Virus record (IMG/VR): IMGVR_UViG_3300035070_002905
Location: 108,111-172,110 of that record
Source: a virus
Reading direction: 5' to 3' (one strand)
DNA length: 64,000 nt
Made by a program: the position numbers and the translations under genes. Shown here piece after piece: positions 10,308 to 63,133 of the stretch (positions within the stretch are counted from its first letter, which is position 1; each line of letters starts with the position of its first letter). The notes beneath the pieces are model-generated. The model was given only the letters and a program-made list of their open reading frames with translations. It made no database searches and was not told the origin of the DNA.

Positions 10308-10334
10308 CAAAAAGAAAGGGCCCGAAGGCCCTTC
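10308..10334 (-). terminator. Rho-independent terminator with UUCG loop
   Basis: Minus strand GAAGGGCC-TTCG-GGCCCTTTC followed by TTTTTG directly after the 1348-aa gene. The stem is 7-8 bp and the loop is a UUCG tetraloop. It separates the first and second giant fibre genes into different transcription units. Confidence 0.85.
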
Positions 10335-10335
10335 A

Positions 10336-31958: not shown

Positions 31959-32702
31959 TTACTTTCCCGCTAAAGCGGCTTCCTTCACTAGCTCAACTGC
32001 AGAGGCGAAATCCATGCCGTCTTCAGTCATAAGCTCTTGAACAGCAGCTGCTTTTTCTAAATCTGAATAATCTTCTGATTGATCGCATGCTTGCTTAACA
32101 AGCTCAACTGCGTCTTCAAAAGAGTGACCTTCTTCTAGCAAGATGCCTACAGCAGCAGCTTTCTCAAGCTCGTCGCCTTCAGACTCAAGCTCTTCAGAAG
32201 CTTGCTTAACTAGTGCGATAGCATCTTCGAAGTCAACACCGTCAGCCATTAGCTCGTCTAGAGCAGCTTTCTTATCGATGTCGGAAGGTTTAGCTGGTAC
32301 GTTAGAAGGCTCATTACCTTCAGATGCCATTACGTCATCTTTGTGTTCGCCACCTGCAACGCCACGCTCTTGAAGTGCTTTAGCTACCTGAGTAACTGTT
32401 TTGCCTTCGCGAGGAGTCAGCTCATCACGAGCATCATCTGAAGCAACCATTGTATCGATTTCTGCGATAACTTTGTTTTCAGCAGCTTTCTCGTGACCAT
32501 CAAGCATTGCTAGGATGCTGTTTGCGATTTCTTGACCTGTAGCCATAGTGTTTGTATCTCCCATATCTGATGCAGATTTTTCTAAAGTTTCTTTAAGTTC
32601 GTCAGCAGCAGAAGTTTCTGATGCTACCTTCTCGATCTCAGCCGAGCCGTCTTCAGCCTCAAGACTTTGAAGCAGGCTGTCTAGAGTAAATTCGTTAGAC
32701 AT
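31959..32702 (-). CDS. acidic head protein with tandem LEKAA repeats, scaffold candidate
   Basis: 247 aa from the ATG at 32702 (GGAG upstream, overlapping the protease gene end by eight bases). Very acidic and helical. The C-terminal half has three imperfect repeats of about 34 residues: a K-K/K-A-A-A helix start (IDKKAAL, LEKAAAV, LEKAAAV), an LxxDG or EEGHSF turn, FEDAxxLVKQA, then a Ser/Glu-rich spacer. About nine hydrophobic-x-K-x-A motifs occur. Acidic, helical, repeatedly cleavable proteins next to the protease gene are typical of prohead core or scaffold; this is the best scaffold candidate in the window. Confidence 0.55.
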   Translation of the reverse strand: MSNEFTLDSLLQSLEAEDGSAEIEKVASETSAADELKETLEKSASDMGDTNTMATGQEIANSILAMLDGHEKAAENKVIAEIDTMVASDDARDELTPREGKTVTQVAKALQERGVAGGEHKDDVMASEGNEPSNVPAKPSDIDKKAALDELMADGVDFEDAIALVKQASEELESEGDELEKAAAVGILLEEGHSFEDAVELVKQACDQSEDYSDLEKAAAVQELMTEDGMDFASAVELVKEAALAGK

Positions 32703-34137
32703 TGTATTCTCCAAGTTCATTACGAATCGCTAGATCCATAAGTTTCATTGTCAGGGCCGATTGCTCGACTCCACTATTTGATTTTACCTCACTGGCAGTC
32801 TTGTTCATCCCGCCTGCGATGGTACTAATCATTATTTTAGCGATTATCGCACCGCCAACCAGTTTTAGCAGCGTATTTGTGTTACCGGTAGTAGGCCTAC
32901 TATTAGTTTGTGTGAGGTTTCGCGCGTATTCAGGACGAATATCTGCACCCCCACGGCCTTCCTGCCAGTTAAGCGCTGCTCGTTTCTCTACGTAATCTCG
33001 CTGATAGCTAGATGTCTCCATATACTTATACAAGATGTTGATAAGCTTAGGATTCGGTAGAGTATCTTCCATATCAGGGATCAGTTCGTCGGCGTCAAGA
33101 GGGATACTCTCTACTCCGTTTTCCTGAAGTGCCTTCATGGCTAACATAGCGATCTCGCCTTCACGAGAGCCTACATACTTACTTGCTAATATTTTAACCA
33201 AAAACTCAACAGACGGATTAATTCCAAGGTGAGCAAGGGTAGAAATGATATCCGTAAGAGGGTACGGCTTGAGTACATCTACTACATCCATATCGGGATC
33301 GCGAACCTTCTCTAGGATCTGTAATAGACTTCCACTAGCCTCTACCTCGCCAGGAATTTCCTTAACGATATCAGCAGCTTTAGCTAAAGCGGCCTTCTTA
33401 ATGCTAGCTCGTTTCTCTGTACCGTAGGATACGCCTTCTGCGTCCGCAGCCTCTGCCGAACCGATAGTAACCTCGTCACCTGCAACTTTCTGGAGTACAG
33501 AACTAGTTACATCTGCGGGACGAATTACGATCGAAATGTCAAAGAATTTTAGCGGACCGACGTTGATCGCCATTACGCGACGGCCGTCAGGCATAATCTT
33601 ATTGAGTTGGGTAGTAAGATGCGAACAGTATTCTGCACGGCTATGCGCCTTATTATTACAGATACTACATACATCGTACGGGGTGTTACACGCCATAGAC
33701 GTCATAGGGAATTGGCCATCTTCGATAGCTGCAAGTTCCATAGCTCCCAGCTGCTTATCGACTTCGGCTACTAATTCTACTCGGTGCATACGTGGATTGT
33801 AGTACGAGTAGATTACCTTACCGATCGCTCGAGCGGGATCTTTATTGACGTGATGACGGAATACATGAGCGGGACTAGTCTCGAAAGTCTTGTACCACTG
33901 TAGCAGGTTATCCTCAGGGAAGTAGTCCCCGTTACGGTTAGAGCCGTAGTATTCGCCTGCACCCATAGCGTTGATGTGTAAGTAGAACTTGCCTTCTTCG
34001 GGAGTAATCTCCCCGACAAACTCCGTGACCTCATCTGCGGCCGCGGCTTTCTCAAGTCCACTAGAAGGAGACTCTAGGTCTAGTAGAGTCACCTCCCAAT
34101 CTTCAGAGAAGGACACAGCATCAATTAGCTTGTCCAT
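32695..34137 (-). CDS. prohead (capsid maturation) protease
   Basis: 480 aa. The first 210 residues have the plan of Ser-His prohead proteases: a beta barrel with GSNRNGDYFPE, FRHHVNKDPARAIGKV (catalytic His at 95 or 96), then VELVAEVDK, and FPMTSMAC with Ser147 as nucleophile candidate. The Ser is followed by a cysteine/histidine cluster (C157, C160, H165, C171, H173) as in phage proteases with a metal-binding insert. INVGPLKFFDISIVIRPAD closes the domain. Residues 210-480 are helical and carry seven K-x-A motifs, including LEKAA at 28-32, so the enzyme may process itself. It lies just before the scaffold-like and capsid genes. Confidence 0.75.
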   Translation of the reverse strand: MDKLIDAVSFSEDWEVTLLDLESPSSGLEKAAAADEVTEFVGEITPEEGKFYLHINAMGAGEYYGSNRNGDYFPEDNLLQWYKTFETSPAHVFRHHVNKDPARAIGKVIYSYYNPRMHRVELVAEVDKQLGAMELAAIEDGQFPMTSMACNTPYDVCSICNNKAHSRAEYCSHLTTQLNKIMPDGRRVMAINVGPLKFFDISIVIRPADVTSSVLQKVAGDEVTIGSAEAADAEGVSYGTEKRASIKKAALAKAADIVKEIPGEVEASGSLLQILEKVRDPDMDVVDVLKPYPLTDIISTLAHLGINPSVEFLVKILASKYVGSREGEIAMLAMKALQENGVESIPLDADELIPDMEDTLPNPKLINILYKYMETSSYQRDYVEKRAALNWQEGRGGADIRPEYARNLTQTNSRPTTGNTNTLLKLVGGAIIAKIMISTIAGGMNKTASEVKSNSGVEQSALTMKLMDLAIRNELGEYNV

Positions 34138-35677: not shown

Positions 35678-37804
35678 TTATCCCTCGTGTGCGATTAAGT
35701 TTTGCAGCTCTACGTAGTTCTCTCCGAGATTACGGAAGGTGTTACGAGTAGCTGTCATCAGTGAGTTAAGTGCATCGGCATCGATCTGCTCTGCCAGCTT
35801 AGCACTGTTAAGGCGCATAAGGAACAGTGAACGTCCCAGCTTGTCGATTGCATCCTTGATATCAGGTAGATACTCTTGGATTGCTCCGTGCATATCCGGG
35901 TTATGGAGCATCTCGGTAATCAGAGTAGCCTCCATAGCCTGACGGTCAGCCGAAGCTGCAGCATTCTCTACCTTACCTGGCATGCCCTCGTTACGTTGGC
36001 GTGCGGTACCGGTAATCTGCTTATCATTAGGAAGTTTCTCACCGTACTCAACCATAGGAGAGCGCATTGTAGCACCGCCACCAGTGGAAGGACGACCGCC
36101 GCCTCGAGCTGCCTCTTTATTCATACCGAAGAACGCGTCCATCTCCTTAGCGGCTGCATCTTTCAGCATACCTACTGCGCGATCTTCTGCGGTACCCGTC
36201 AGCTGCTCGGTCTGACCCTTCCCGCGGACTGCGGTATGAGTAGCTCCTAGAGCTGAAGCGGATGTAGGTGCAGGGATGTTTCCGTAACGTGGGAATGGCG
36301 CCGGTTTAGCGTTACGAGAATCCTGACCACCTGAACCGGTACGTGCGTTGGCTTGCTTGCTCATACGGATATTAACCGTACCCTGCTCTTCAGCCTTCTT
36401 AACGAAAGTCTCAACGGTCGGTACGTCCATCGACCAGGTTACCAGGCCGTGTGTGATCATCTGAGGTTTACCGCCTACTACCTGACCGTCTACTGCATAT
36501 TGACCATCACGGTGCTGTAGAGTAGATGCGTAAGGGAGTGCGCGTGCCTCGTTGATCTCATGGATCATCTGTGCCTTATTGATATCAGTCATGATTTCAA
36601 CAGGTGCTTCAGATAGTGGAACGAATGTAGCATCCTCTGGAATAAGGTGCATACCTTTAGACTTGCAGTAGCGCTTGATAGATGGATGAGTCTTGAAGTA
36701 AGTACAACCACCATCGCCTAGTACCTTGAAGCAAGTCCAATCGCCTTCTTTGTATACTTCAGCCACTGTACCGGCCTCTGCATATCCTTCAGGAGTAGCG
36801 AACATACCATAGTCTTTCTGCTTGACGGCTACTAGAGCCTTGGCGCCAAGCTCTTCGAGTGCCGATTCATAGCTGACCGGACGCTCGTATACTACAGGCT
36901 TCTGCTTACACGTCATGCTAACCATCTGGCCTTTAGTAGTAACTACCAGAGGACCTTCGCCGATAGGAGCATTCGTACCGCGACCCAGTCGCTTATTAAG
37001 TAGAAGGGCATCGCCGTCCTGATTAGACTCAAGACGCTTAAGACATACCACGCTGATATCTTGTCCGGCCATAGTAAGACCGTTGTAGGCCTCGCCAGGT
37101 TGCAGGGAGTTAGCCTGAACGAATGCGTCTACACCACCGGCTTCTACAGCTACGATGGTTGACTTAGGTGCGTTCTTAACGGTGTAGCCTTTACTTAGTA
37201 CTTCCTGAACCTGCTCTTCGCTAAGTCCACCGGCCTGAGTGACAACCTCTGGCATTGGACCTACCGGTGCACGGTATTCAGGCTTCGGACGATTAATCGC
37301 CTCGATTAGAACCTCTACATCCATTACTGGATTGATGTGGTTAGCGCACTTCTGAATCATCGCCGCCATACCTTCACGCAACTCGTTAGGAAGCTGAGCT
37401 GCAAGTTCATGTACACGGGACTCGCCTGCGTATACGTACTTACCAGTCTTAGGTGGAACGATGGCATCATATAGATCAGGATCTCGAGCCACGTGGCCTG
37501 GAACCTTCTCGCCCTGACCGAGGAACGGGTCCTTCTCCATCAGCCATTCGACTGACTTCTTGGTTAGCGGGATGAATACCTTAGCTTCGGCGTCGAAGAT
37601 CGACTCCATAGGCTGTACGGTATCACCCTTAGCAATAACAGGTACGTAGTAGTACTTGTTATTCATATCGATAATGAACATACCGATCTGAATGCCATTG
37701 TTTTCAGGCAACTCCTCGGTCATGTCCTTGAAAGCTGCGACGTAGCGTCCCAGTTCCGGGGCTTGACGTTGAAGCTGGTTCATCGCCTGCTTAGAATAGT
37801 CCAT
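35678..37804 (-). CDS. large virion-region protein of unknown function
   Basis: 708 aa. The N-terminal 500 residues are mixed alpha/beta (GIQIGMFIIDMNNKYYYVPVIAKGD, YVYAGESRVHELAAQLP, VVCLKRLESNQDGDALLLNKR) and the C-terminal 200 are helical and low-complexity. K-x-A motifs occur at YSKQA (residues 3-7, an apparent N-terminal processing site), MSKQA and MNKEA. No known domain identified. It lies directly downstream of the polymerase C-terminal subunit (11-bp gap) and upstream of head proteins, and is probably part of the virion or polymerase packaging. Confidence 0.5.
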   Translation of the reverse strand: MDYSKQAMNQLQRQAPELGRYVAAFKDMTEELPENNGIQIGMFIIDMNNKYYYVPVIAKGDTVQPMESIFDAEAKVFIPLTKKSVEWLMEKDPFLGQGEKVPGHVARDPDLYDAIVPPKTGKYVYAGESRVHELAAQLPNELREGMAAMIQKCANHINPVMDVEVLIEAINRPKPEYRAPVGPMPEVVTQAGGLSEEQVQEVLSKGYTVKNAPKSTIVAVEAGGVDAFVQANSLQPGEAYNGLTMAGQDISVVCLKRLESNQDGDALLLNKRLGRGTNAPIGEGPLVVTTKGQMVSMTCKQKPVVYERPVSYESALEELGAKALVAVKQKDYGMFATPEGYAEAGTVAEVYKEGDWTCFKVLGDGGCTYFKTHPSIKRYCKSKGMHLIPEDATFVPLSEAPVEIMTDINKAQMIHEINEARALPYASTLQHRDGQYAVDGQVVGGKPQMITHGLVTWSMDVPTVETFVKKAEEQGTVNIRMSKQANARTGSGGQDSRNAKPAPFPRYGNIPAPTSASALGATHTAVRGKGQTEQLTGTAEDRAVGMLKDAAAKEMDAFFGMNKEAARGGGRPSTGGGATMRSPMVEYGEKLPNDKQITGTARQRNEGMPGKVENAAASADRQAMEATLITEMLHNPDMHGAIQEYLPDIKDAIDKLGRSLFLMRLNSAKLAEQIDADALNSLMTATRNTFRNLGENYVELQNLIAHEG

Positions 37805-37815
37805 TTATATACTCC

Positions 37816-39645
37816 TTAATATCTGCCGCCTTTGCCATCGCCGAAGTTTCCGCCCATGACGTATGCTGCAATTGGATCAGTAGATGAGATTTCAGATTCG
37901 CGGCCCATGACTACAGATTCTTTCAGGTTACGTACCTGATTACCAGTAGCAAGACGAGAGATCCAGTTTTCATCTAGATGTTTAACTGAGTTTAGACCAG
38001 GTACGAGAGGCTTAACGGATAGATTAGTCTTACTGACTTTAACCTTATCAACGCCTTTAAGCTCTAGCTCGTCTATGTGGTTTTGATCTAGCACAGTACC
38101 AGGAGTCATATATAAGACACCGTGTGATAGCATGCGACCTAGCGCAGCACTCAACGGTAGCTCTTCGACGTCCTCTTGAAGTTCTTTTTGTAGAACGTTA
38201 ACGTTAACCTTCTGGCCTGGCAGGTATCCAGTATCTCCTGGATTCTCTACTAGGACATGCTTAACCATGTTCTTAGCGATCAGATCATAGTGACGCGTGT
38301 CGAGTTTATTACCTGCACCCTCGTAGATTTCACGTAGGGTATTAGTAATGTGCTTACGACCGGCGCCGGTTCCGCGTAGTTCTACTAGTTCACGAGGGTT
38401 AATCGTACCGGTAGATAGAGCGTCGCCTTGCTTGACCTGTTGACCCATCTTAACTAGAACTTCCTGCTCACGAGGAACGAAGTGTTCTTGGCCGTTGATA
38501 TAGATCTTGTGTGCATTCAGAGAGGTACGCAGAATCTCATCTACCTTACCGTTAAGGCTAGCGATGGTCGCCTTCTCTTTGAATGTACTAGGGTTAGCTA
38601 GTAGGTTACTTACTTGATCGAATGGGCTGGCACGTTTACCGGCTTTCGAGTCATGCTTCGTAGATAGGATCATCTGGGTCAATACCTCAGATGCCGATTG
38701 AGCTGCCAGTACGCCTACGTTCTCGCCTACATCTGGAACCTTAGCACGTGAATCCATGCCGTAACACTTCTGGCATACTCCGTCAGGAGCCTCACAGGTC
38801 AGCGTAGAGCGGACGGTGATGTTAGTCTTACCAGAGCTCTTAAGTTCCTTCCAGTACTCCTCGTCGATTAGATGATTAGTACCCGCCTCATAGCGGTGCA
38901 TGATCTTACCCTTGTCGCTAACCTTAGCAGAGTCACCGTTCTTAGTCCCGCAGTCGGGCTCGGTGATTACTTCATGGTATACGTTAGGAGTGATCTGCTT
39001 AAACATCGCACCAGGTTTACTAGTAGATAGCTGTGCAGATACCGTGTTACCACGACCCCAATATGACATCGCTAGTTGCTCTGCAGGACTAAGGCCCTCA
39101 GCGTACGAGCTAGTAATGGCTACAGGGATTGGCGTGCCGTCGATTCTCTTAGAGATCAGCGGTGAGCTTGTCGCCTGTTGTAATTGGTTCGGGTTACCAC
39201 GAGCCTTGGTCTTAGCCATGATCGCCGCGGTAGAGTTACGGTCTACTAGGTAGTTAAGGTTTTGATCAACCATCTTAGGCTGATACTTGTTTGTCATGTC
39301 GTTGATCATATCGTTCTTCTGCTGCTGACTTAAGTCGCCGCGAAGGTTGATCTGATCGATCTTACCTTTGAACTCTTGAAGCATCGTCTTGCGATCTTCC
39401 GAGTCATTGTAGTAATCTGCTAGTGGAGTAGAATAGCCATTAGCTGTAGCCTGACCGAAGAACTCGTTACTAAGATTAGTAATAGTATCTCCAGCTTCGC
39501 TGCCGCCGTAGGTAATAACCTTATGCATAAGGTCGTTTACTCCGCCTTTATCCAAGTGTCGAGTCACATCGTAATGCTCTTTGACGCCACTAGGAAGCAT
39601 CTTTTTTATTTTCAGCGCTCCCGCTGCGAAGACTGGTTCCGTCAC
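37816..39645 (-). CDS. RNA polymerase beta-prime C-terminal subunit
   Basis: 609 aa from a GTG at 39645 with AAGGAG six bases upstream. It carries the second half of bacterial beta-prime. Residues 129-176 contain the bridge-helix region (IMAKTKARGNPNQLQQ) and ITSSYAEGLSPAEQ (184-190). The four cysteines of zinc site 2 are complete: C232 (EPDCGT), C284, C291 and C294 (CEAPDGVCQKCYG). Residues 307-336 hold GENVGVLAAQS...LTQMILSTKHD, the trigger-loop region, with Gln324 and His331 kept. VENPGDTGYLPGQ and a C-terminal NLKESVVMGR complete the match. Compared with E. coli the large trigger-loop insertion is missing. Pairs with the 1520-aa subunit. Confidence 0.93.
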   Translation of the reverse strand: MTEPVFAAGALKIKKMLPSGVKEHYDVTRHLDKGGVNDLMHKVITYGGSEAGDTITNLSNEFFGQATANGYSTPLADYYNDSEDRKTMLQEFKGKIDQINLRGDLSQQQKNDMINDMTNKYQPKMVDQNLNYLVDRNSTAAIMAKTKARGNPNQLQQATSSPLISKRIDGTPIPVAITSSYAEGLSPAEQLAMSYWGRGNTVSAQLSTSKPGAMFKQITPNVYHEVITEPDCGTKNGDSAKVSDKGKIMHRYEAGTNHLIDEEYWKELKSSGKTNITVRSTLTCEAPDGVCQKCYGMDSRAKVPDVGENVGVLAAQSASEVLTQMILSTKHDSKAGKRASPFDQVSNLLANPSTFKEKATIASLNGKVDEILRTSLNAHKIYINGQEHFVPREQEVLVKMGQQVKQGDALSTGTINPRELVELRGTGAGRKHITNTLREIYEGAGNKLDTRHYDLIAKNMVKHVLVENPGDTGYLPGQKVNVNVLQKELQEDVEELPLSAALGRMLSHGVLYMTPGTVLDQNHIDELELKGVDKVKVSKTNLSVKPLVPGLNSVKHLDENWISRLATGNQVRNLKESVVMGRESEISSTDPIAAYVMGGNFGDGKGGRY

Positions 39646-39871
39646 GCTTGCTCCTTATATCTCTGCCGATCTCTGCTAGTGTAGCCGAGCGCGGTGCTTT
39701 GATAGGTTCATAAGAAATTGGTTTGCCATCCCTGGCTACATAGGCCCTAGAGTCACCTTTCTTCGTATCCACAGAGTTCTGGCTCTGCTTCATAGGCATC
39801 TGGGCTGGGGTTTTAACTTTAGGTGTTTGGACTTTTGGGTTGCCCGCCCGCACCTTCTGTACTAGATCCAC
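39590..39871 (-). CDS. small basic protein between polymerase genes
   Basis: 93 aa from a GTG at 39871 with AAGGAG upstream. Lys/Pro/Ser-rich and disordered (GNPKVQTPKVKTPAQMPMKQSQNS), with RDIRSKRDGTSLRSGSAENKKD at the end. Overlaps the start of the beta-prime C-terminal gene by 56 bases and the upstream gene by 53 bases. Could be a polymerase accessory or linker protein; not recognised. Confidence 0.45.
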   Translation of the reverse strand: MDLVQKVRAGNPKVQTPKVKTPAQMPMKQSQNSVDTKKGDSRAYVARDGKPISYEPIKAPRSATLAEIGRDIRSKRDGTSLRSGSAENKKDAS

Positions 39872-40058
39872 TCTTCAGCTCCTTAGCCTTACGGTATAGT
39901 TTCGTCTTCAGGTATCTCTTCAAGCCTCGTTTGGTAGCTCCTTCAGAACCGATGGCTCTAATGGCTGCCTTAGGGACATCAACTGTCATCTTAGGAGGAT
40001 CGATGGTGACTTCCTCTGCCTGCTTAAACAGTCTAGCCTGCTCGGTAAGTGTACACAT
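39819..40058 (-). CDS. small basic protein downstream of late promoter
   Basis: 79 aa (MCTLTEQARLFKQAEEVTID...). Has one K-x-A motif (LFKQA) near the N-terminus and a basic C-terminal half (TKRGLKRYLKTKLYRKAKEL). First gene behind a late-type promoter. Translationally overlapping with the next small gene. Unknown function, probably virion- or polymerase-associated. Confidence 0.45.
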   Translation of the reverse strand: MCTLTEQARLFKQAEEVTIDPPKMTVDVPKAAIRAIGSEGATKRGLKRYLKTKLYRKAKELKSGSSTEGAGGQPKSPNT

Positions 40059-40083
40059 TTAATTTCTCCCATAGTTTACTAAG

Positions 40084-40092
40084 TATATTTTA
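40084..40092 (-). promoter_or_regulatory. late-type promoter motif TAAAATATA
   Basis: Minus-strand TAAAATATA, 26 bp before the 79-aa gene and directly after a terminator. It starts a new transcript for the beta-prime C-terminal gene and downstream head genes, independent of the beta gene. Confidence 0.65.
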
Positions 40093-40097
40093 AAGAA

Positions 40098-40121
40098 AAG
40101 GCGCCCCGAAGGACGCCTCTT
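40098..40121 (-). terminator. terminator with UUCG loop inside the polymerase region
   Basis: Minus strand GGCGTCC-TTCG-GGGCGCC, 7-bp stem with one G-U pair, flanked by AAAAAGA before and TTTTCTTT after. It ends the transcript that includes the portal and beta/beta-prime-N genes. Confidence 0.85.
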
Positions 40122-40122
40122 T

Positions 40123-40263
40123 TTATCTACGTGCTGTCTGTGCCTTATCTACCGGAGTCTCACGCTCTGGTATAATAGGACTCTTTGACTTGGCCTTACC
40201 GATATTATTAGCGGCATTAGTAGAGGCGATAGCCCTCGCCTCCTCTACTAGTGGTCTCTTCAC
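40123..40263 (-). CDS. 46-aa basic peptide overlapping the polymerase gene end
   Basis: The stop of the beta/beta-prime-N gene (TGA) overlaps a GTG start in the string GTGA, giving MKRPLVEEARAIASTNAAN... and ending in AQTARR before the terminator. Overlapping start/stop and proper termination context support translation; the peptide is too short to classify. Its composition (basic, Ala-rich) is like its neighbours. Confidence 0.4.
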   Translation of the reverse strand: MKRPLVEEARAIASTNAANNIGKAKSKSPIIPERETPVDKAQTARR

Positions 40264-43200
40264 TTCTTACGGATTCGGATAGGAGTGTTCTCTGAGATCT
40301 GTCCAGATTCCAGTGCAGCCATAGCCGCCTGTTCACTGTCGAAACTCATAGTCTCCTGCTCCATGTCCGGACTAGTCAAGTAAGATGATCCTAAGATCGC
40401 CTCGTGACCCGGTGCGTACATCGGAGAGCCATGCCCCATACGAGCATCGTGTAGATGGTTCTCAGGGAGTAGCTTATCCTTAGCCTCTTGAATTGCTTCA
40501 GGAGTCACCGGAGCGAACATCGACATTGCATCACCATCGTAATCGGCCGCGAAGCCAGGTAGATGGAGGATGTTCATACCGATTGTCTTACCGCTTGTCG
40601 GTACCGCTTTAAGCGCTAGGATATTCGTCTTCATCAATGTAGGTGCACGGTTGAGAATCACCGGTACTTCCTGACACATCTTGTTGAACGAAGCGCCTGC
40701 CGCCTGGTTGCGAGTCTCGTAAGCCTCTTTAGCCGATGCTGCATCGTAACCCTTCTGAGCCAGGTCACGCTTGATGTGCATCTCGTACATAGTCCATAGC
40801 TGCTCTTTAGGGATCTTAGCCTCGTTGAAGCCTACATCCGGAGCTGCGTAGATCGTACCACGACCAGAGATGTCCTGCTTCTTACTCAGAAGCTTGCTCT
40901 GGAAGAGACCGGTCTTAGGACCGCCTTCACCACCAATCTGCTTAAGCAAACCTTTAAGGCCCTGCTGCTTATGCTTATAGTTAGCCGGATCGCCTGCCGC
41001 CATGATAGCCTTAAGACCCTGATAGGTCTCAGAACGAACATCCTGCAGTGGCTGATACTCAGGTGTAACGATGTCTTTCAACTCGCCAACCTTCTCGTTA
41101 CTGATGAACGCATCTTTATACAGAGAGTTAACGTCTGCTACCGAAGCACGTCCACCCGTTACCGATACTGGACGCATCACTGGTGGAATGATCGGAATGT
41201 TACGTAGCATTACCGCTTTAGAGGGATCGTCGTAACCCTGCTTGTTAAGACCGTGTAGGTACTTCAACTTCTTAATCGCCTGGTCTTTCTTACTACGTGA
41301 AGTAATAGAGTGTACCTGACCTTTAAGATAGTCTACCTCGGCAGTCGTATCGATGTCCGCTAGCATTTGACTGAATGCCTCGCCGCCTACGATCATCTCA
41401 CCGTTCTCAGCCTGCTTAGTGAAGTCAGGGATAGAGCTAACGTTTACCTGACGAACAACCTCTTCGCTATCAGAATCGATCAAGTCGAATATACCAGTAG
41501 CCTTGCGCTTAACGCCAAACTTACCAGAGATCAGACCGTCGTATTCCTTCTGCTTAAGATCGAGCATTGAACGTACAGGATCCTCGAAGACTGGGTTAAC
41601 TGTAGGCTCTGCCAGCTTCATATGAGACCACTTCTGACCGTCAGGTCCACCGGTGATACTCGTATCGAATAGGCCGCCCTTCTCAGGACGTGCATCCTTA
41701 CCGTAAACCATCTTAGCATTCTGGATCTCTCCGTTAGAACGTTTAAGGATTGACTCATCGGTCAGAGGAGAAAGACTAAGCTTACCGTTACGGTGACTCA
41801 CGTCGATGCCTGAACCTACTAGGTAATCGAAGAACTTGTTCGTAGCGAATGTAGTCTTAGGCTTCGGAAGCGGTAGACCTCGTACGTACTTGTCCCAGTA
41901 TTCATTCTGATCTGTTAGCGCGCCACCTTCAGATTTAATGGTACCGATTTCCTTCAGGTTCTTACGAGCGTTCGAGCCTAGTAAGCCTAGGAACTCCATG
42001 TAACCTACTGATTTAGCACCTTCTTCACCACCTTTAGTTGGCTGACCGACGTTATCGTAGCCGCCTACCGAACGAGCCGAGTAGTTAGCGTCAACCGTCT
42101 TGTCTAGCTTAAGGATGTACTGTGGTCCAGCTAGTACGTTAGCACCGATAGTCTTACCGGTCTGCGGATCGTAGATCTCCTCGGTATCGCTCAGGCCATG
42201 CTTGGCAAGGTCATCACGAATCTTCGCAAGGTTATCCTTCTCACCGTAGTTCTGTACCATGTACGGCTGTCCGGTCTTCTTAGCGATCTTACTAGCTGCA
42301 GTCTCAAGGACCTGGCCTAGGTTGATACGCGAAGTTACCGACGCAGGGTTAAGTAGAAGGTCTACTGCTTTACCAGTCTCCTTACTATGTGGCATCTCGT
42401 GATCGTCTAGGATCAGCGATACAACACCCTTGTTGCCGTGCAGTCCAGTAATCTTATCACCCATCTCAAGGTTCTTCTCAGAACGAATGATTACGCGGAT
42501 ATTCTTACCAGAGTGGTCTACATCTACAATCTCTCCAGCCTCGTGGTGATCCCATACAATCGAAGCATCACGATACGGACTTACCAGAGTCTTATGCAGA
42601 CGTCCCAGTACTTTATCCGTATCAGACTGTTGGCGCTCCTCCATGATAGGCCAGATTAGATCGCCATGACTTAGCTTACGGCCTTTAGTAGGCTTGCCGT
42701 CCATTGCGAATCCATTAAGCTGTTCAGGCTTGTACTTACGACCGAAGTTCGCACGGAACTTAGCGGCATCTAGTACTGTTTCTTTACCGGTCTGGTAGTC
42801 AAACTTATAGCAGTGGTTACTGGTCATAGACTCGGCAGCCGACTTACTGATGATGATACCATCCTCGTGGTTAAAGCCTTTGTACGGGATGTATGCTGCG
42901 TGCAGGTTCTTACCTAGAGCAAGACTTCCGTCTTTAGTATAGTTATTATCTGCTACTACATCGCCAGGTTTAACTCGATCGCCGATCTGTAGATGACTCT
43001 CAGAGTCATCGTGGAAGCCCTTCATGTTAAACGGCATGTTATCTACCAGCTTAATCGTATGGTCTTCCTTAGTACCATCCTCGCGGATTGTAATCGACTT
43101 AGGAGTCTTACCGACTACCGTGCCTTCTACTGGGCTCTGACTTGAGAATACTCCAGCCATACGAGTGCCGTAAGAAGTACCAGTATGATCGACCGTCTGT

Positions 43201-44822
43201 ACTAGCGGCTGCTCACGTTCCTTCAGGCTTAGAGACTGAGGGATTGCCTTACCTGCCATCGTTAGACGACCGGGGTGGTTACTGTTAAAGAACGGCACAA
43301 GGTTAGTCGTTACCGTGTACATATCAGAACCTGCTGGAATCCAGTAGTCTACCTGTGCACGAGGCACCTCGGCGAACTTACCGTTACGCTGGGCCTGTAC
43401 TGTAGGAGCATCAGACTTAAGGCCGTCCGAGAAGCCTACCGTAGAGTTCATCATCTCGTTAGACGATAGGTAGTGTTCGACACCCTTACTATCTAGTACA
43501 CGAGCGTACATGTTACCCTCTTCATCACGACGTGAAGTCATGGTGAAACGCTGGTCGATACCAGCCATGCCAGATTCCGGTGTACGTGATGGATCAAGGA
43601 TACCTAGATGCGAAGGATCGACGTTACGAGCCTCGTCTGGAACACCTTGAGCCGATGCGATACCGCCGTAGCCCTGACCTAGGATTGTAGCCTTACCAAC
43701 GTTCTCAATGCTCTCTACCGGGTTTGTTTCCGTCGGTGTTGATGCCAGTGAGCTGTTGATGATGAAATTAGTGTATACCTTGTTAAAAGGCTTGGCTCCA
43801 AGTACTCCTCGAATCTTAGGGTTATTCTTGTCCACGCGGCCAAGAGCACGCTGTACATTCTTGAGGGTACCTGTAACATTCGCATTACCTTTACTGAAGT
43901 GGCTGCCGATGAAGTCCGGAAGGTTCTGCACCTTCTTGAACTGCAGGCTATCACGGTTATCTTCCTGACGTTCACCACGGCTGATATCAACCAGGTTCTT
44001 ACAGGCACGCATGATGGTCTCTGCCTCTACATGGCCGAACGACTTACCTAGGGTAGTCTCGGTAGTAGATGCATCAAGGCTAGAGCTCTCTAAGGCCTCG
44101 CGAAGGATACGAGCCTTCTCGTCGACCGGTAGACTCTTATCCTGCAGACGCTTGTTAACCATCTTACCGTATAGGTTAGTGATTACCTTGTTCTCCATAC
44201 CCTTAGATGCTTTGATGTTAACTGTAAGCAGGTCCTGAGGAATGAAGCGCGACATGTCTGCAAGGTTCATCTTGAAGACTTCAGTCAGTACTGGGATTAG
44301 CGGTACGCCGGCAGACTTAGCGCCACCTGCACGTACGTTGAAGACCTCTGTTTCAGGGTCTAGAACGATACTAAAATTCGCACCCGAGCCGGTGTTAAAG
44401 GAGGATTCCAGTTCGTCGTTATCGCGAGAGCGAGTATATACTCCAGGCTTAAGCACAATGAGGTTAGCGACATTGTAGTTGTTCCCTCTATAGATTGCAG
44501 TATGCTTACCCGTCATAGAGTAAGTGTCTGCTAGTTGAAAGTTCTTCACGGTATCGACGAGATCGCCGGTCTTCTTATCGTACATCTTAACGGTACCCTT
44601 AACCGGGTACGTTAGAGATTTACCTTTAAGAATTGCCTGCTTCTCATCCTCGTGGTCGAAGTGCTTCTTGTCTGCGTAGACATCTTCCACTTCGATTCGG
44701 TAATTGTTATCCTCAATAGGAAACGTTGAAGAAATCCCTTTGATCATCGCGTTGTCAGTCTTCTCATTGATATCATGAGGGGATGTAAACAGCGGGATTA
44801 GTTCATCAGCCTTCTTTGGCAT
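40260..44822 (-). CDS. RNA polymerase beta / beta-prime N-terminal fusion subunit
   Basis: 1520 aa. Residues 1-1017 are beta: GKHTAIYRGNNYNVANLIVL and GANFSIVLDPETEVFNVR (protrusion/lobe), AAYIPYKGFNHEDGIIISKS, EMGDKITGLHGNKGVVS, NPASVTSRINLGQVLET, and YILKLDKTVDANYSARS near the end of beta. Residues 1018-1520 are beta-prime N-terminus: SPLTDESILKRSNGEI, KGGLFDTSITGG, VTGGRASVADVNSLY, LSKKQDISGRGTI, VILNRAPTLM and FAADYDGDAMSMF. The catalytic metal-binding Asp triad is D1427, D1429, D1431. The N-terminal zinc ribbon of beta-prime is absent. The protein ends 89 residues after the active site, so beta-prime is split there and continues in the 609-aa gene. It lies one gene downstream of the portal gene. 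Confidence 0.95.
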   Translation of the reverse strand: MPKKADELIPLFTSPHDINEKTDNAMIKGISSTFPIEDNNYRIEVEDVYADKKHFDHEDEKQAILKGKSLTYPVKGTVKMYDKKTGDLVDTVKNFQLADTYSMTGKHTAIYRGNNYNVANLIVLKPGVYTRSRDNDELESSFNTGSGANFSIVLDPETEVFNVRAGGAKSAGVPLIPVLTEVFKMNLADMSRFIPQDLLTVNIKASKGMENKVITNLYGKMVNKRLQDKSLPVDEKARILREALESSSLDASTTETTLGKSFGHVEAETIMRACKNLVDISRGERQEDNRDSLQFKKVQNLPDFIGSHFSKGNANVTGTLKNVQRALGRVDKNNPKIRGVLGAKPFNKVYTNFIINSSLASTPTETNPVESIENVGKATILGQGYGGIASAQGVPDEARNVDPSHLGILDPSRTPESGMAGIDQRFTMTSRRDEEGNMYARVLDSKGVEHYLSSNEMMNSTVGFSDGLKSDAPTVQAQRNGKFAEVPRAQVDYWIPAGSDMYTVTTNLVPFFNSNHPGRLTMAGKAIPQSLSLKEREQPLVQTVDHTGTSYGTRMAGVFSSQSPVEGTVVGKTPKSITIREDGTKEDHTIKLVDNMPFNMKGFHDDSESHLQIGDRVKPGDVVADNNYTKDGSLALGKNLHAAYIPYKGFNHEDGIIISKSAAESMTSNHCYKFDYQTGKETVLDAAKFRANFGRKYKPEQLNGFAMDGKPTKGRKLSHGDLIWPIMEERQQSDTDKVLGRLHKTLVSPYRDASIVWDHHEAGEIVDVDHSGKNIRVIIRSEKNLEMGDKITGLHGNKGVVSLILDDHEMPHSKETGKAVDLLLNPASVTSRINLGQVLETAASKIAKKTGQPYMVQNYGEKDNLAKIRDDLAKHGLSDTEEIYDPQTGKTIGANVLAGPQYILKLDKTVDANYSARSVGGYDNVGQPTKGGEEGAKSVGYMEFLGLLGSNARKNLKEIGTIKSEGGALTDQNEYWDKYVRGLPLPKPKTTFATNKFFDYLVGSGIDVSHRNGKLSLSPLTDESILKRSNGEIQNAKMVYGKDARPEKGGLFDTSITGGPDGQKWSHMKLAEPTVNPVFEDPVRSMLDLKQKEYDGLISGKFGVKRKATGIFDLIDSDSEEVVRQVNVSSIPDFTKQAENGEMIVGGEAFSQMLADIDTTAEVDYLKGQVHSITSRSKKDQAIKKLKYLHGLNKQGYDDPSKAVMLRNIPIIPPVMRPVSVTGGRASVADVNSLYKDAFISNEKVGELKDIVTPEYQPLQDVRSETYQGLKAIMAAGDPANYKHKQQGLKGLLKQIGGEGGPKTGLFQSKLLSKKQDISGRGTIYAAPDVGFNEAKIPKEQLWTMYEMHIKRDLAQKGYDAASAKEAYETRNQAAGASFNKMCQEVPVILNRAPTLMKTNILALKAVPTSGKTIGMNILHLPGFAADYDGDAMSMFAPVTPEAIQEAKDKLLPENHLHDARMGHGSPMYAPGHEAILGSSYLTSPDMEQETMSFDSEQAAMAALESGQISENTPIRIRKK

Positions 44823-44823: not shown

Positions 44824-45108
44824 TTACTCTCCTTGACGTTCTAAATATGTAACTACTACTGTATAAACTCCAGTCGCCGTACTAATAGAATCCTTACGCT
44901 CCAAGATCATTACCTCCTGGTCTGCACTGACCGAGCGGTTAAGCAGGGTCTCGTACGCAGTGATATCGTCGCTTCCCTCGGCACTGTTAGACAGCGTGAA
45001 GAAACCGATACGATATCGGTAGTTAGTCAGGTCTGGACCGCCTTGATTATTAGCCGGCAGCATCTCTGGAGATGCAGGCCCTTGGTTTTTCTCATTAAAC
45101 AGATCCAT
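44824..45108 (-). CDS. small head-region protein between portal and polymerase genes
   Basis: 94 aa from ATG 45108 (GAGGAG upstream, inside the portal gene end). Start of the sequence is MDLFNEKNQGPASP, then a beta-type region (YRYRIGFFTLSNSAEGSDD ... VYTVVVTYLERQGE). Overlaps the portal gene by 14 bases and ends one base before the polymerase start codon, so all three are likely coupled. Unknown. Confidence 0.5.
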   Translation of the reverse strand: MDLFNEKNQGPASPEMLPANNQGGPDLTNYRYRIGFFTLSNSAEGSDDITAYETLLNRSVSADQEVMILERKDSISTATGVYTVVVTYLERQGE

Positions 45109-46918
45109 TACGTGACTCCTCAAAGATTCTCTGTTGTGCCGTACGTGAGCGACGGCGTGTTGGTTTTGGTTTCGGTGCTACCGATGCGGCCTTCTGCATA
45201 CCGGCCTGAGGATCTTCCTCTACCTCGTCTGCTCCGCCCATGTATTGCTGGATGATAGTCATAACGTGGTCGTACTTCGCCTCGTCTTCGGCCTGTAGGG
45301 CCATAACCATTTCCATACGTTTCTGTTCGTCAGGCTCTTGAAGAATCGCCTGCGCTTTAGTCATGACATCTTGACGGTAATCGTTATAGCCGGACTCGTC
45401 CTCGCCATCAGATACCTCGTCTTTGTGAGCCATGTAGACTGCCTGTTCCATCTTGTACTTCATGCGTACTGATTCTTCAGCCTTATCGATCTGCTCTTGG
45501 ACAATCTTCTCGCTCTCCTTCTCGGGATCGATGTCGCATGTCTCGAGCAGGGTCTTGCCGCTGATTAGGCTAGCCTGATGTAGCTGTAGGTACATGTTCT
45601 TCAGTGCATCGTTATCGGTCAACTGGTATGGCACCAGGCTAACATCGGCTTCTTCTAGGCCTAGGTAGTTAGCGATCTGATCGACGATCCAAGTAAGATA
45701 GCGTTTAATCTTACGGTTGTACTGGTTCATGTTGTTCTCTAGTAGACGTAGGCCTACCGTAGAGCTCGTCCAGTTAGTCGTACCGCTCAATAGCTCACGG
45801 CTCACGCCCATTGCCATTAGCAGCTGCTCTTCAGCGAATTGCAGTTCCTGTGTAACCAGTAGAGATTTACCCTGACCGCCTACGTAAGCTGTACCGATCG
45901 GCACTGGACTTAGTAGTACATGGTTAGGATCCTGCTTGAATCGCTGCAGGCTTGACTTCACGTTAGTCGTGAAGTTATTCATACTCATCATCGATACCGG
46001 GTCGCCGGCAGAAGAACTCTGTTGCGGGTACAATACGCGCATCGGGTTCATATGCTCCAGGGCAATCGCCTCGTTAGCCTTCTTCAGACACTGCATGTAG
46101 AATACAGTCGAGTAGTGAGATAGTAGCGGCGGAACACCGAATCCCTCGATGAAGTCACCCATTGTAAGGCTCTTCATGTGGTGGATGGCGCCAGGCGCAA
46201 ACTTAAATTCTTTCTGTGTGCGTACAGCCTCTACGAATTCCCATGGTACAGTCGTCAGGAAGTGCGGGTCACCGATTAGGATCTTACGCTTGACGTCGCC
46301 AGGGATGTTGTAGAAGTACTCTGTATCGCCGGTAATAGGGTTATCATTGATGGAGATGTTATCCGGCTTCCACTTAATGATATTGATACGGTTTACATCT
46401 TTACTCTTCGTATCGATGCGCTTGTATATTACCTTCTGTGAACATCCAGGACATTCTCCACTGAACTGAAACTTCTTCCAGATCGCGTACTTGCCGTCCA
46501 GCGCCTTGCGGCTGTTGTAGCTAGTCTTACACGAAGGGCACTCTAGCATACGATCGATAGGAAAGTAGATAGAGGTGAAGCTGTTTCCGTAAGCATGGTA
46601 ATCGAAGCCACCGTCTGACATCTTCTCGATTAGCTTAACCGATTCGAATATCTCTTCGTACTTCTCACGGAGTTGTTTCTTCGGAGAACTCACGGTTACT
46701 TCAGTGATCGGATAGGTCGCTAGCTTACGTAGTACCTCAGCACTAGTAGGAGACTTAACGATGATGAATCGCGTCCACTTAAGAAGGTCGTGAAAACTAC
46801 GCGGGAGGAACTGACTGGATACGTCGTACGCAGGGTTCGCGTAAGTACCTAAGTCATATCGTCCGTAGTAGCCACCAGGTGTAATTGTTGGGCTAGTCCC
46901 AATCTGACCAATAGCCAT
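45095..46918 (-). CDS. portal protein with zinc-ribbon insertion
   Basis: 607 aa. Its plan is that of phage portals: N-terminal wing (HDLLKWTRFIIVKSPTSAEVLRKL), FDYHAYGNSFTSIY, a long central part with PWEFVEAVRTQKEF and GDFIEGFGVPPLL, the stem-crown region (ELQFAEEQLLMAMGVSRELLSG ... TVGLRLLENNMNQYNRKIKRYLTWIVDQI), and a charged helical C-terminus. An inserted C-x-x-C ... C-x-x-C unit (CPSC and CPGC, about 30 residues apart, near residues 130-165) predicts a zinc ribbon. One K-x-A motif (MQKAA) lies about 35 residues from the C-terminus. It is the first gene of the structural block; no terminase gene is adjacent. Confidence 0.85.
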   Translation of the reverse strand: MAIGQIGTSPTITPGGYYGRYDLGTYANPAYDVSSQFLPRSFHDLLKWTRFIIVKSPTSAEVLRKLATYPITEVTVSSPKKQLREKYEEIFESVKLIEKMSDGGFDYHAYGNSFTSIYFPIDRMLECPSCKTSYNSRKALDGKYAIWKKFQFSGECPGCSQKVIYKRIDTKSKDVNRINIIKWKPDNISINDNPITGDTEYFYNIPGDVKRKILIGDPHFLTTVPWEFVEAVRTQKEFKFAPGAIHHMKSLTMGDFIEGFGVPPLLSHYSTVFYMQCLKKANEAIALEHMNPMRVLYPQQSSSAGDPVSMMSMNNFTTNVKSSLQRFKQDPNHVLLSPVPIGTAYVGGQGKSLLVTQELQFAEEQLLMAMGVSRELLSGTTNWTSSTVGLRLLENNMNQYNRKIKRYLTWIVDQIANYLGLEEADVSLVPYQLTDNDALKNMYLQLHQASLISGKTLLETCDIDPEKESEKIVQEQIDKAEESVRMKYKMEQAVYMAHKDEVSDGEDESGYNDYRQDVMTKAQAILQEPDEQKRMEMVMALQAEDEAKYDHVMTIIQQYMGGADEVEEDPQAGMQKAASVAPKPKPTRRRSRTAQQRIFEESRNGSV

Positions 46919-46961
46919 GTAAGTTCCTCTTTGATTTGTTATGATGATTTTAGCTCGTAAT

Positions 46962-46970
46962 AGTATTTTA
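46962..46970 (-). promoter_or_regulatory. late-type promoter motif TAAAATACT
   Basis: Minus-strand TAAAATACT about 44 bp upstream of the portal start, the start of the main structural block. One base differs from the commonest form. It lies eight bases from the -35 of the divergent early promoter. Confidence 0.5.
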
Positions 46971-46977
46971 CGATTTG

Positions 46978-47033
46978 TTCAACAATAGCCTGCCGATTTG
47001 TTATAAGTAATACGTAGGGATATACACTCTACG
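46978..47033 (+). promoter_or_regulatory. early promoter with 5' stem-loop (copy 1 of tandem pair)
   Basis: TTCAAC (46978-46983), 18-bp spacer, TATAAG (47002-47007), then TAATAC and a stem CGTAGGG / CACTCTACG-type pairing (47013-47019 with 47027-47033, one G-U). It drives the 47120 operon together with the second copy 58 bp downstream. Confidence 0.7.
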
Positions 47034-47035
47034 CT

Positions 47036-47090
47036 TTAAATATATAGTGTTCATCTTGTTATAAGTAAGATGTACAGGAGAATACTCTCC
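47036..47090 (+). promoter_or_regulatory. early promoter with 5' stem-loop (copy 2 of tandem pair)
   Basis: TTAAAT (47036-47041), 18-bp spacer, TATAAG (47060-47065) followed by TAAGATGTA and the stem GGAGA-ATAC-TCTCC (47077-47090). The -35 is weaker than in the other copies. Nearest start codon is at 47120. Confidence 0.7.
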
Positions 47091-54571: not shown

Positions 54572-55342
54572 CTAAACCAGTTCGTCCTGTAAGACCTCGA
54601 ACGCACGATCTTTAAGATCCTTCAAGTATTGGCGAGTAAGCTCCGGCTTCTCGTCAATAATTTGAGCGTAAGATTTCTTTTTTCCATCATCCGTAAGACC
54701 GTAGAGATCCTTAATGATTTCTGCCTCATCTCCAAAGGTATCTACTACATCGTACATACGATCAAGTAGAATCTCATAGTCAGCCTGACCCATCCCATCG
54801 ATGACCGGAATGTCATCCTCGTTTACACAGTCAAGGTAGAACGTTAGGAATGCCGTTTGACTCAGTTCGTTAAGATCCTTCTTGCTAGCATCCGGAAACT
54901 CTGCCTGTAGTTGAGCCATCGTAGGCTCGCGACCTAACTCCTCTTTGAACTTACGGATCTTAACAGATAGCTGCTGCTTCTGTGTCGGTAGGGCTACCAG
55001 ACGGAATTCACTCATAGCTTTCATCTGGCGCTGGTACACCCACCAGCCTGCGTACGTTAGGAAGCGCATGCCGGTAGAGTTATCAAACTTGTCCAGGCCT
55101 ACTAGAAGTCCCTCGTTACCTGCAGAGATCAGTTCGATGAACTGTTCGATATCACCGTTGCTCAATTTTTTAGCCTGCTTAAAGACGAAGCGTAGGTTGC
55201 TCGCGATTAACTGGCTCTTGGCACGTGCTCGATCGATCGACGGTGCGTCCTCATCGAAAAAGATATCTAAGAGTGCAGCCTCTTCTTCTTTCGATAGGAT
55301 TGGATGCTCGCAGATCTCAGAGTAGTACTTGCTTAGGTCCAT
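54572..55342 (-). CDS. RNA polymerase sigma factor, sigma-70 family
   Basis: 256 aa. Region 1.2-like start (DLSKYYSEICEHPILSKEEEAALL), then region 2 with NLRFVFKQAKKL, EFI-type ELISAGNEGLLVGLDKFD and RFLTYAGWWVYQRQMKAM, which includes the -10 recognition helix. Region 3 is represented by LPTQKQQLSVKIRKFKEELG and region 4 by a shortened helix set (YAQIIDEKPELTRQYLKDLKDR). So a complete but compact primary-type sigma. The gene has its own sigma-70-like early promoter with a 5' hairpin. With the phage-encoded beta/beta-prime subunits this suggests a full phage transcription machine. Confidence 0.9.
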   Translation of the reverse strand: MDLSKYYSEICEHPILSKEEEAALLDIFFDEDAPSIDRARAKSQLIASNLRFVFKQAKKLSNGDIEQFIELISAGNEGLLVGLDKFDNSTGMRFLTYAGWWVYQRQMKAMSEFRLVALPTQKQQLSVKIRKFKEELGREPTMAQLQAEFPDASKKDLNELSQTAFLTFYLDCVNEDDIPVIDGMGQADYEILLDRMYDVVDTFGDEAEIIKDLYGLTDDGKKKSYAQIIDEKPELTRQYLKDLKDRAFEVLQDELV

Positions 55343-55360: not shown

Positions 55361-55408
55361 AAATGTCCCCTTCATTTAGATTATAACATAGCGAGAAATC
55401 TTATTGAA
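55361..55408 (-). promoter_or_regulatory. early promoter of the sigma gene with 5' stem-loop
   Basis: Minus strand TTCAAT (55408-55403), 17-bp spacer, TATAAT (55385-55380), then AAATG-AAGGGGA-CATTT, a 5-bp stem at 55377-55361. Same architecture as the plus-strand copies, so the sigma gene belongs to the early class. Confidence 0.75.
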
Positions 55409-62797: not shown

Positions 62798-63133
62798 ATG
62801 CTACAAAAATACAAAATGATACAAGGTTTGCTACACGATAAACCCAGGCCCCATAAGGGTTTGTGCCATTTTGTAGCATTGTAGCAAAATATTCCGGTTA
62901 TATACACATACTACTGGAGAGAGTAACATTATTATACACAACTATACACTAAACGAGATTTTATTTATTTATATATAAGACCATCTATAAATATCTATTT
63001 CTCCTATAGTGTATATCTAAATCCCCCGCTACATGCTACAATGCTACAAATCGTCCTGAAGCCAATACTGGCGGGGCTTTACCGTGTAGCAAAGCATGTA
63101 GCAACCTGTATCAATGTAGCAAAAGGAAATACC
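62798..63133. other. candidate replication origin: iterons, AT-rich core and DnaA-type boxes
   Basis: 336 bp without a gene. Nine exact heptamers TGCTACA or its complement TGTAGCA: forward at 62799, 62829, 63034 and 63042; reverse at 62872, 62880, 63085, 63097 and 63115. Three more differ by one base. They flank an AT-rich centre (62900-63020) with TTATACACA (62932-62940), an exact match to the E. coli DnaA box consensus, a one-mismatch ATATACACA (62900-62908) and TATAGTGTATA. Such iteron plus AT-rich plus DnaA-box composition is the hallmark of replication origins. Position after the primase-helicase and exonuclease genes supports it. Confidence 0.7.

What the first reader, a model, noticed from the sequence alone, without database searches (positions are those of the whole stretch)
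37816..44822. Phage-encoded multisubunit RNA polymerase with a beta/beta-prime-N fusion and separate beta-prime-C
The 1520-aa protein is a full beta joined to the N-terminal half of beta-prime, with the catalytic DYDGD at residues 1427-1431. The 609-aa protein is the rest of beta-prime, with bridge helix, four-cysteine zinc site and trigger-loop His/Gln kept. Known phiKZ-type phages split beta and beta-prime into separate pieces; a beta/beta-prime-N fusion plus a single C-terminal piece is a different architecture. The genes sit between portal and prohead protease, so the enzyme may be a virion component. No alpha or omega gene is visible.
Basis: partly seen in the sequence, partly recalled or inferred. 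Interest (0 to 1): 0.85.

Follow-up and report, generated by a model that had tools for sequence, protein, structure and literature searches.

The report
Phage-carried RNA polymerase with fused subunits
This bacterial virus carries its own cell-like RNA-making enzyme, built from one giant protein in which the two normally separate catalytic halves are joined plus a second smaller protein, and its relatives appear to pack that enzyme with a promoter-recognising sigma protein into the virus particle; this is an unusual and testable way for a virus to switch on its genes without the host's enzyme.

Summary
Window 40260-44822(-) encodes a 1520-aa complete beta joined without a linker to the first ~550 residues of beta-prime. 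Window 37816-39645(-) encodes the rest of beta-prime from its own start codon. Catalytic residues are kept; no alpha or omega gene was found.

It is not phiKZ-type and not a lone oddity. The same two-gene layout occurs in Salmonella phage Arash, Vibrio phages D69/D148/D181 and IMG/VR phages, and in relatives at ~30% identity. A sister group has broken the fusion once more, giving three genes. The family lies outside cellular RNAPs, the two mReC-like contigs tested, and YerA41/Carin-5.

In Arash the orthologues of both subunits, and of a divergent sigma factor also encoded in this genome, were found in purified virions (published). That sigma and a second, non-virion sigma are encoded in every relative of ~140 kb or more at >=35% identity that was checked. 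Two phage-specific promoter motifs are present; RNAP genes lie under the late-type motif, the second sigma gene under the early-type one.

Best explanation: an alpha-less, sigma-dependent RNAP, made late, packaged with its sigma and injected to transcribe early genes. Activity, injection and sigma-promoter pairing are inferred.

The parts
40260..44822 (-). beta-beta-prime-N fusion, 1520 aa: residues 1-1013 = beta, 1014-1520 = beta-prime ~19-566 (E. coli numbering), both double-psi barrels, catalytic AADYDGD
   Evidence: orthologue Arash gp206
37816..39645 (-). beta-prime-C, 609 aa, GTG start with AAGGAG upstream: bridge helix, 4-Cys zinc site, trigger loop
   Evidence: orthologue Arash gp216
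40081..40120 (-). hairpin terminator (GGCGTCC-TTCG-GGGCGCC, T-run) run directly into TTTAAAATATACTT, a late-type promoter-like site upstream of beta-prime-C
   Evidence: sequence; fold z -3.3; D69 has a terminator and ATTAAAATATAG in the same gap
39590..39871 (-). small basic ORF (93 aa) overlapping the start of beta-prime-C; conserved in D69 and L027 only
44824..45108 (-). small ORF between portal and the fusion, same position as Arash gp205 and D69_0260
45095..46918 (-). portal-like protein, first gene of the operon
   Evidence: phrog_16240 E 7e-9; Arash gp204 in the same position
46953..46971 (-). late-type promoter-like site GTAAAATACTATTACG, 53 nt before the portal gene
54572..55342 (-). 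sigma-70 family factor, 256 aa (regions 2-4), orthologue of Arash gp196; not in the Arash virion list
   Evidence: Pfam Sigma70_r2 E 5e-8; PDB SigA E 4e-21
55370..55388 (-). early-type promoter-like site TGTTATAATCTAAATGA, 46 nt before the sigma gene
46999..47078 (+). two early-type promoter-like sites TTGTTATAAGTAA, divergent from the portal-RNAP operon
35678..37804 (-). 708-aa protein downstream of beta-prime-C, orthologue of Arash virion protein gp218
32695..34137 (-). head-maturation-protease-like protein
   Evidence: phrog_18299 E 1e-7

Best explanation
The two genes encode the whole catalytic core of a phage-specific, cell-like two-barrel RNA polymerase. The fusion protein brings both catalytic barrels (beta lysines K790/K798, beta-prime aspartates D1427/D1429/D1431) together in one chain. 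The joined chain may do the assembly job that alpha does in bacteria, by bringing beta and beta-prime together. Beta-prime-C supplies the bridge helix, trigger loop and zinc site and must associate with it. The enzyme is expressed late from the phage's CTAAAATA-type promoters with other virion genes. It is packaged with the divergent sigma factor (orthologue of Arash gp10), enters the cell with the DNA, and transcribes early genes, probably from the TGKTATAAGTAA promoters. One early-type promoter precedes the second sigma gene (window 54572-55342), which would then direct the core to late promoters. Shown: gene architecture and conservation, catalytic residues, absence of recognisable alpha/omega, both sigma genes, motif positions. 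Published for an orthologous phage: both subunits and the gp10 sigma in virions. Inferred: activity, holoenzyme packaging, injection, which sigma reads which promoter, the assembly role of the fusion.
For: Catalytic and trigger-loop residues conserved across the family. Arash virions: gp206 3516 spectra/128 unique peptides, gp216 1210/40, sigma gp10 467/24, or 2.3, 2.0 and 2.0 spectra per residue, compatible with about 1:1:1; gp196 sigma absent from the list. The gp10-type sigma occurs in 18 of 25 related records, including every record of ~140 kb or more and even the ~30%-identity relatives (E ~1e-9); the gp196-type sigma in 19 of 25. No alpha in any of 25. Clamp-helix segment, the main sigma-2 docking site, kept at about full length. 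Early-type motif: a matrix built from this genome finds 9 strong sites in Arash with 0 in eight shuffles; in relatives its sites all lie on one strand per genome, 5/0, 13/0, 0/10, 0/6. Late-type motif precedes portal-RNAP, terL and beta-prime-C.
Against: Nobody has shown activity. The Arash virion list holds 116 proteins, including several replication enzymes, and its authors allow that abundant enzymes may merely co-purify. The gp10-type sigma is divergent (region 2 barely recognisable, no clear region 4), and the beta flap tip, which docks sigma region 4, is missing. The exact early-type motif is absent from most three-gene relatives and from L011/L026. AlphaFold models of the two chains were too uncertain (pTM 0.39 and 0.29) to show the assembled active centre.
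Confidence: 0.6

Rival explanations
1. The enzyme is a real phage RNAP, but works only after it is made in the infected cell (a middle/late polymerase); its presence in virions is passive carry-over and early genes are read by the host RNAP.
For: The Arash virion list is long and contains non-structural enzymes. RNAP genes are under late-type promoters.
Against: gp206 gives the most spectra of all virion proteins, more than the major capsid protein in total, and gp196 sigma is absent, which argues against bulk lysate contamination. No second RNAP was found in this record. The early-type motif lacks a TTGACA element and is shared by phages of different hosts.
Confidence: 0.22
2. The phage sigma factors act on the host core RNAP, as in many other phages, and the phage core works without sigma, as phiKZ and AR9 enzymes do.
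For: The window sigma (54572-55342) is close to cellular primary sigmas (E 4e-21). The flap tip is missing from the phage beta.
Against: The gp10-type sigma is co-inherited with this RNAP down to ~30% identity and is reported in Arash virions in proportion to the core. The clamp helices are retained.
Confidence: 0.13
3. It is simply another phiKZ-type or mReC polymerase.
For: It is a phage-encoded beta/beta-prime homologue with a beta-prime break after the catalytic barrel, as in phiKZ-type enzymes.
Against: phiKZ-type phages split beta and lack sigma; the mReC screen required an intact beta-prime of at least 800 aa with NADxDGD, while this has AADYDGD and a split beta-prime. In trees it is a separate, deep, fully supported group from two mReC-like contigs, E. 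coli and YerA41/Carin-5.
Confidence: 0.04
4. The split or fusion is an artefact (assembly error, intron, intein or frameshift).
For: Relatives do carry introns and inteins in these genes.
Against: The same junctions occur in isolates D69 and Arash and many contigs. No intron is found in the window. The gap holds a terminator, promoter-like site and separate start codon.
Confidence: 0.01

Closest known systems
Salmonella phage Arash gp206/gp216/gp10 (OQ632216, PMC10585845)
   Same: Same two-gene architecture, gene order portal-small ORF-fusion-gap-beta-prime-C, 56-57% identity, same sigma pair, same promoter family; subunits and gp10 sigma reported in virions
   Different: Gap between the two genes is 4.8 kb with early genes on the opposite strand; a helicase (gp217) follows beta-prime-C; the published paper does not mention the fusion in the passages I read
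Vibrio phages D69, D148, D181 (OZ195729, OZ196545, OZ196140)
   Same: Same architecture, 73% and 65% identity, annotated only as hypothetical proteins
   Different: D148 and D181 carry extra DNA with a homing-endonuclease gene in the beta part; in D181 it is a group I intron
phiKZ/AR9-type virion and non-virion RNAPs
   Same: Phage-encoded two-barrel multisubunit RNAP without alpha/omega; virion form injected; beta-prime broken after the catalytic barrel
   Different: There beta is also split, beta and beta-prime are not joined, and no sigma is encoded; here beta is whole and fused, and two sigmas are encoded
mReC RNAPs (PMC7481178)
   Same: Phage beta and beta-prime still alignable to cellular enzymes
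   Different: Full-length beta and beta-prime with NADxDGD by the screen's criteria; here fused/split with AADYDGD, no N-terminal zinc ribbon, no flap tip
P23-45 gp96 tail-fused vRNAP / crAss-like RNAP
   Same: Virion RNAP with both barrels in one chain; two promoter classes (P23-45)
   Different: Very divergent single-subunit enzymes; here a near-cellular enzyme needing a second subunit and probably sigma
Helicobacter/Wolbachia RpoBC fusions (own knowledge)
   Same: beta joined to beta-prime
   Different: Cellular, full-length beta-prime, alpha present

Membership tests
Cell-like two-barrel (DPBB) RNA polymerase | DxDGD aspartate triad in the beta-prime barrel | tested here: met
   D1427, D1429, D1431 = E. 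coli D460/462/464
Cell-like two-barrel (DPBB) RNA polymerase | two catalytic lysines in the beta barrel | tested here: met
   K790, K798 = K1065, K1073
Cell-like two-barrel (DPBB) RNA polymerase | bridge helix and trigger loop with Q929/H936 | tested here: met
   Q324, H331 in beta-prime-C
Cell-like two-barrel (DPBB) RNA polymerase | N458 of the NADFDGD motif (conserved in cellular enzymes, not part of the catalytic triad) | tested here: not met
   Ala in this clade; Ala or Ser throughout the close family
phiKZ/AR9-type jumbo phage RNAP | beta split into N and C pieces, at least four or five polypeptides in all | tested here: not met
   beta is whole and fused (definition)
phiKZ/AR9-type jumbo phage RNAP | no sigma factor encoded | tested here: not met
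   two sigma genes
phiKZ/AR9-type jumbo phage RNAP | no alpha/omega | tested here: met
   alpha also absent from 25 relatives
phiKZ/AR9-type jumbo phage RNAP | two RNAP sets (virion and non-virion) | tested here: not met
   one beta-prime-C locus in the record; the record may be incomplete
mReC | intact beta-prime of at least 800 aa with NADxDGD | tested here: not met
   beta-prime split, AADYDGD
mReC | groups with mReC RNAPs in phylogeny | tested here: not met
   separate 100%-supported group; only two mReC-like contigs, not the published set, were used
Virion RNA polymerase | present in mature virions | tested here: inconclusive
   not testable for this phage; orthologues in Arash virions per PMC10585845
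Virion RNA polymerase | enters the cell and transcribes early genes | not testable with these tools
   needs infection experiments
sigma-dependent RNAP | sigma-2 docking clamp helices in beta-prime | tested here: met
   segment kept at about E. coli length
sigma-dependent RNAP | flap-tip docking site for sigma region 4 | tested here: not met
   flap tip deleted family-wide

The most novel reading that the evidence does not exclude
The first phage lineage known to pack and inject a sigma-dependent, alpha-less holoenzyme of cell-like RNA polymerase, with a two-step sigma cascade (virion sigma for early, newly made sigma for late promoters), in which fusion of beta to beta-prime replaces the alpha-guided assembly step.
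Probability: 0.4. Interest if true: 0.8.

Novelty: new variant of a known kind. Interest (0 to 1): 0.62.

Why it matters
All cellular multisubunit RNAPs need alpha-type subunits to assemble and cellular initiation factors to find promoters; phiKZ-type phage enzymes dispense with both. This family appears to dispense with alpha but keep sigma, which makes it a natural test of whether joining beta to beta-prime is enough for assembly. Cultured representatives (Arash on Salmonella ATCC 14028; Vibrio phages) exist, so assembly, rifampicin resistance, sigma dependence and injection can be tested now. The family also records how the large subunits are joined and broken: fused forms in deep relatives, one more break in a sister group, introns and inteins at catalytic motifs.

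Tried and rejected
Gap between the two genes as a group I intron: Rfam found none in the window. Single-protein scan of viral contigs found nothing, owing to poor peptide patterns; alignment-based scans worked. AlphaFold2 of fusion residues 321-1520 and of beta-prime-C gave pTM 0.39 and 0.29; Foldseek's best hits are bacterial beta and beta-prime (E 1e-39, 4e-24), but TM-scores of 0.2-0.3 mean the assembled centre is not validated. Fission-then-refusion: the tree rooted on deep relatives needs two changes, but a single clade of three-gene forms is not rejected (AU p 0.22), and the earlier tree without those relatives needs one; not claimed. The 32-row careful tree did not finish, so all trees are quick searches. 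Placement against phiKZ: only a weak profile match to gp80. The small ORF before beta-prime-C as an omega-like subunit: found only in the Vibrio-like subclade; dropped. At a loose score cut-off the promoter matrices are no better than shuffles; only high-scoring sites are used.
Full report
WHAT IS THERE. The window is bases 108111-172110 of a 172,110-base IMG/VR phage record. On the minus strand the order is: portal-like (45095-46918), a small ORF (44824-45108), a 1520-aa ORF (40260-44822), a 614-base gap, a 609-aa ORF (37816-39645), a 708-aa protein (35678-37804) whose Arash orthologue gp218 is in virions, two further ORFs, and a head-maturation-protease-like protein (32695-34137). Pfam sees Rpb2_6, Rpb1_1 and Rpb1_2 in the first RNAP protein and Rpb1_5 in the second.

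ANATOMY. Alignment with E. coli maps residues 1-1013 to beta, 1014-1520 to beta-prime ~19-566, and the second protein to ~567-1365. The join has no linker: the last beta residues run straight into the beta-prime segment around E. coli residue 20. Kept: R519 (R678), E653/D654 (E813/D814), K790/K798 (K1065/K1073), R832 (R1106), R1392 (R425), D1427/D1429/D1431, bridge helix, zinc cysteines C232/C284/C291/C294, Q324 (Q929), H331 (H936). Lost throughout the close family: the N-terminal zinc ribbon of beta-prime, the beta flap tip, and N458 (here Ala; Ala or Ser in all others seen). From established knowledge of E. coli RNAP, N458 helps to distinguish ribo- from deoxynucleotides, so selectivity may be relaxed; this is a prediction. 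The rifampicin-pocket segment is also diverged, so resistance is predicted, not shown.

THE GAP. Beta-prime-C has its own GTG start behind AAGGAG. The gap contains a strong hairpin with a T-run (fold z -3.3) followed at once by TTTAAAATATACTT. Phage D69 has a terminator and ATTAAAATATAG in the same gap. The two subunits therefore appear to be separate transcription units, not an intron product; Rfam found no intron in the window.

RELATIVES. tblastn against 50,697 phage records gives four near relatives: Vibrio D69, D148, D181 (73%/65%) and Salmonella Arash (57%/57%); everything else is below ~40%. Scans of IMG/VR added about 50 more loci. Two layouts occur. Two-gene: fusion of ~1500-1560 aa plus beta-prime-C. 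Three-gene: beta with a ~115-residue beta-prime stub, then a ~380-aa catalytic-barrel piece, then beta-prime-C, the extra break lying between E. coli beta-prime ~163 and ~178. Since even the three-gene forms keep a beta-prime stub on beta, the fusion must predate that break. Relatives at about 30% identity (L113, L114, L117; L116 is truncated and carries insertions) also have fused beta-beta-prime-N plus beta-prime-C, so the fused state is probably old. Whether the window's clade never broke or re-fused is unresolved.

PHYLOGENY. In all trees the family is a fully supported group well separated from E. coli, two mReC-like contigs and YerA41/Carin-5. Those other phages have other layouts: separate full beta and beta-prime (L069, L072); beta-prime-N, beta-prime-C and beta as three genes (YerA41); intact beta-prime plus beta (Carin-5). 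phiKZ enzymes could not be placed.

SIGMA FACTORS. Two are encoded. Window 54572-55342 is a recognisable sigma-70 factor (SigA, E 4e-21), orthologous to Arash gp196. G000:78468-79157 is a divergent 229-aa sigma (Pfam region 3, E 1e-6), orthologous to Arash gp10 at 46%. The gp10-type is found in 18 of 25 related records, including every record of ~140 kb or more and the ~30% relatives; the gp196-type in 19 of 25. No alpha was found in any of the 25, with positive controls. By contrast, the published survey of jumbo phages states that RNAP-encoding group 1 phages have no sigma, and that group 2 phages, which all encode sigma factors, have no RNAP (PMC7824862).

VIRION. In PMC10585845, sucrose-gradient-purified Arash particles gave gp206 (the fusion) 3516 spectra and 128 unique peptides, the most spectra of any protein; gp216 (beta-prime-C) 1210/40; sigma gp10 467/24; gp196 sigma not listed. 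Spectra per residue are 2.3, 2.0 and 2.0, compatible with a 1:1:1 complex. Spectral counts are crude, and 116 proteins are listed, so carry-over cannot be excluded; the authors say so.

PROMOTERS. Intergenic DNA of this genome holds two phage-specific motifs. Early-type: TTGTTATAAGTAAnnnGTA, often with TTCAATAA-like sequence ~20 nt upstream. Late-type: CTAAAATAnnnGTA, often directly after a terminator. A matrix from the early-type sites of this genome finds 9 strong sites in Arash (as GGTATAAGTAA) against 0 in eight shuffles, and 4 in 25 kb of D69. In G002-G005, Arash and D69 all exact matches lie on one strand per genome. The early-type motif precedes the window sigma gene (55388-). The late-type precedes the portal-RNAP operon (46971-), terL (G 89401-) and, in weaker form, beta-prime-C. 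The gp10-type sigma lies on the same strand in the late region. 'Early' and 'late' are inferred from the genes downstream, not from expression data.

MECHANISM. The best-supported reading is an alpha-less, sigma-dependent virion RNAP: made late, packaged with its sigma, injected, reading early promoters; a second sigma made early redirects it to late promoters. Steps shown, published and inferred are separated in Best explanation. The main weaknesses are the lack of any activity data, the missing flap tip, the divergence of the gp10-type sigma, and the absence of the exact early motif from most three-gene relatives.

NOVELTY. Phage multisubunit RNAPs are a known kind. The beta-to-beta-prime-N fusion with separate beta-prime-C, and an RNAP with its own sigma reported in the virion, make this a new variant. 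The sequences and proteomics of Arash are public; I found no paper in the searched library that describes the fusion, but the library omits preprints and most subscription journals.

Noticed in passing
window 62806-63123; L006/L007 boundary (G ~39.96-40.22 kb); L009 11412-11737 (G ~91.4-91.7 kb): Three intergenic clusters of iterated TTTGCTACA/TGTAGCA repeats in both orientations around a shared TATGTGTATA..CTCTCT stretch; iteron-like, possibly origins or regulatory sites.
   Followed up: partly
L003 9533-9813 (Vibrio phage D181) with HNH gene 9827-10444; L027 11548-12499: A group I intron (Rfam RF00028, E 1e-26) with an HNH endonuclease interrupts the beta part of the fusion at a conserved motif near E. 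coli R678; L027 is interrupted at the same place.
   Followed up: partly
L113 3213-8612; L116 1-5628 and 9989-12298; L117 8351-11311: Large in-frame insertions with LAGLIDADG and/or Hint-like matches, probably inteins, in the RNAP genes of distant relatives, two of them in the bridge-helix region of beta-prime-C.
   Followed up: partly
L002 14762(-), L003 13693(-): In D69/D181 a near-perfect early-type promoter motif lies in the gap between fusion and beta-prime-C on the opposite strand; in Arash that gap holds genes on the opposite strand. The gap looks like an insertion spot.
   Followed up: partly
window 10306, 16750, 46971 (-), 51001, 55457 (+): Late-type motif sites, several placed immediately after terminator T-runs so that one unit ends where the next begins.
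   Followed up: partly
L005 10950-12322 (G000): Cluster of ten tRNA genes outside the window.
   Followed up: no
G020:C1:8605-9596: The gp196-type sigma gene is in two pieces (129 and 153 aa) in one relative; intron, frameshift or assembly error not resolved.
   Followed up: no
G021 (L113), G022 (L116), G023 (L117): The ~30% relatives have the gp10-type sigma but no match to the gp196-type, so the virion-type sigma seems the older partner.
   Followed up: no
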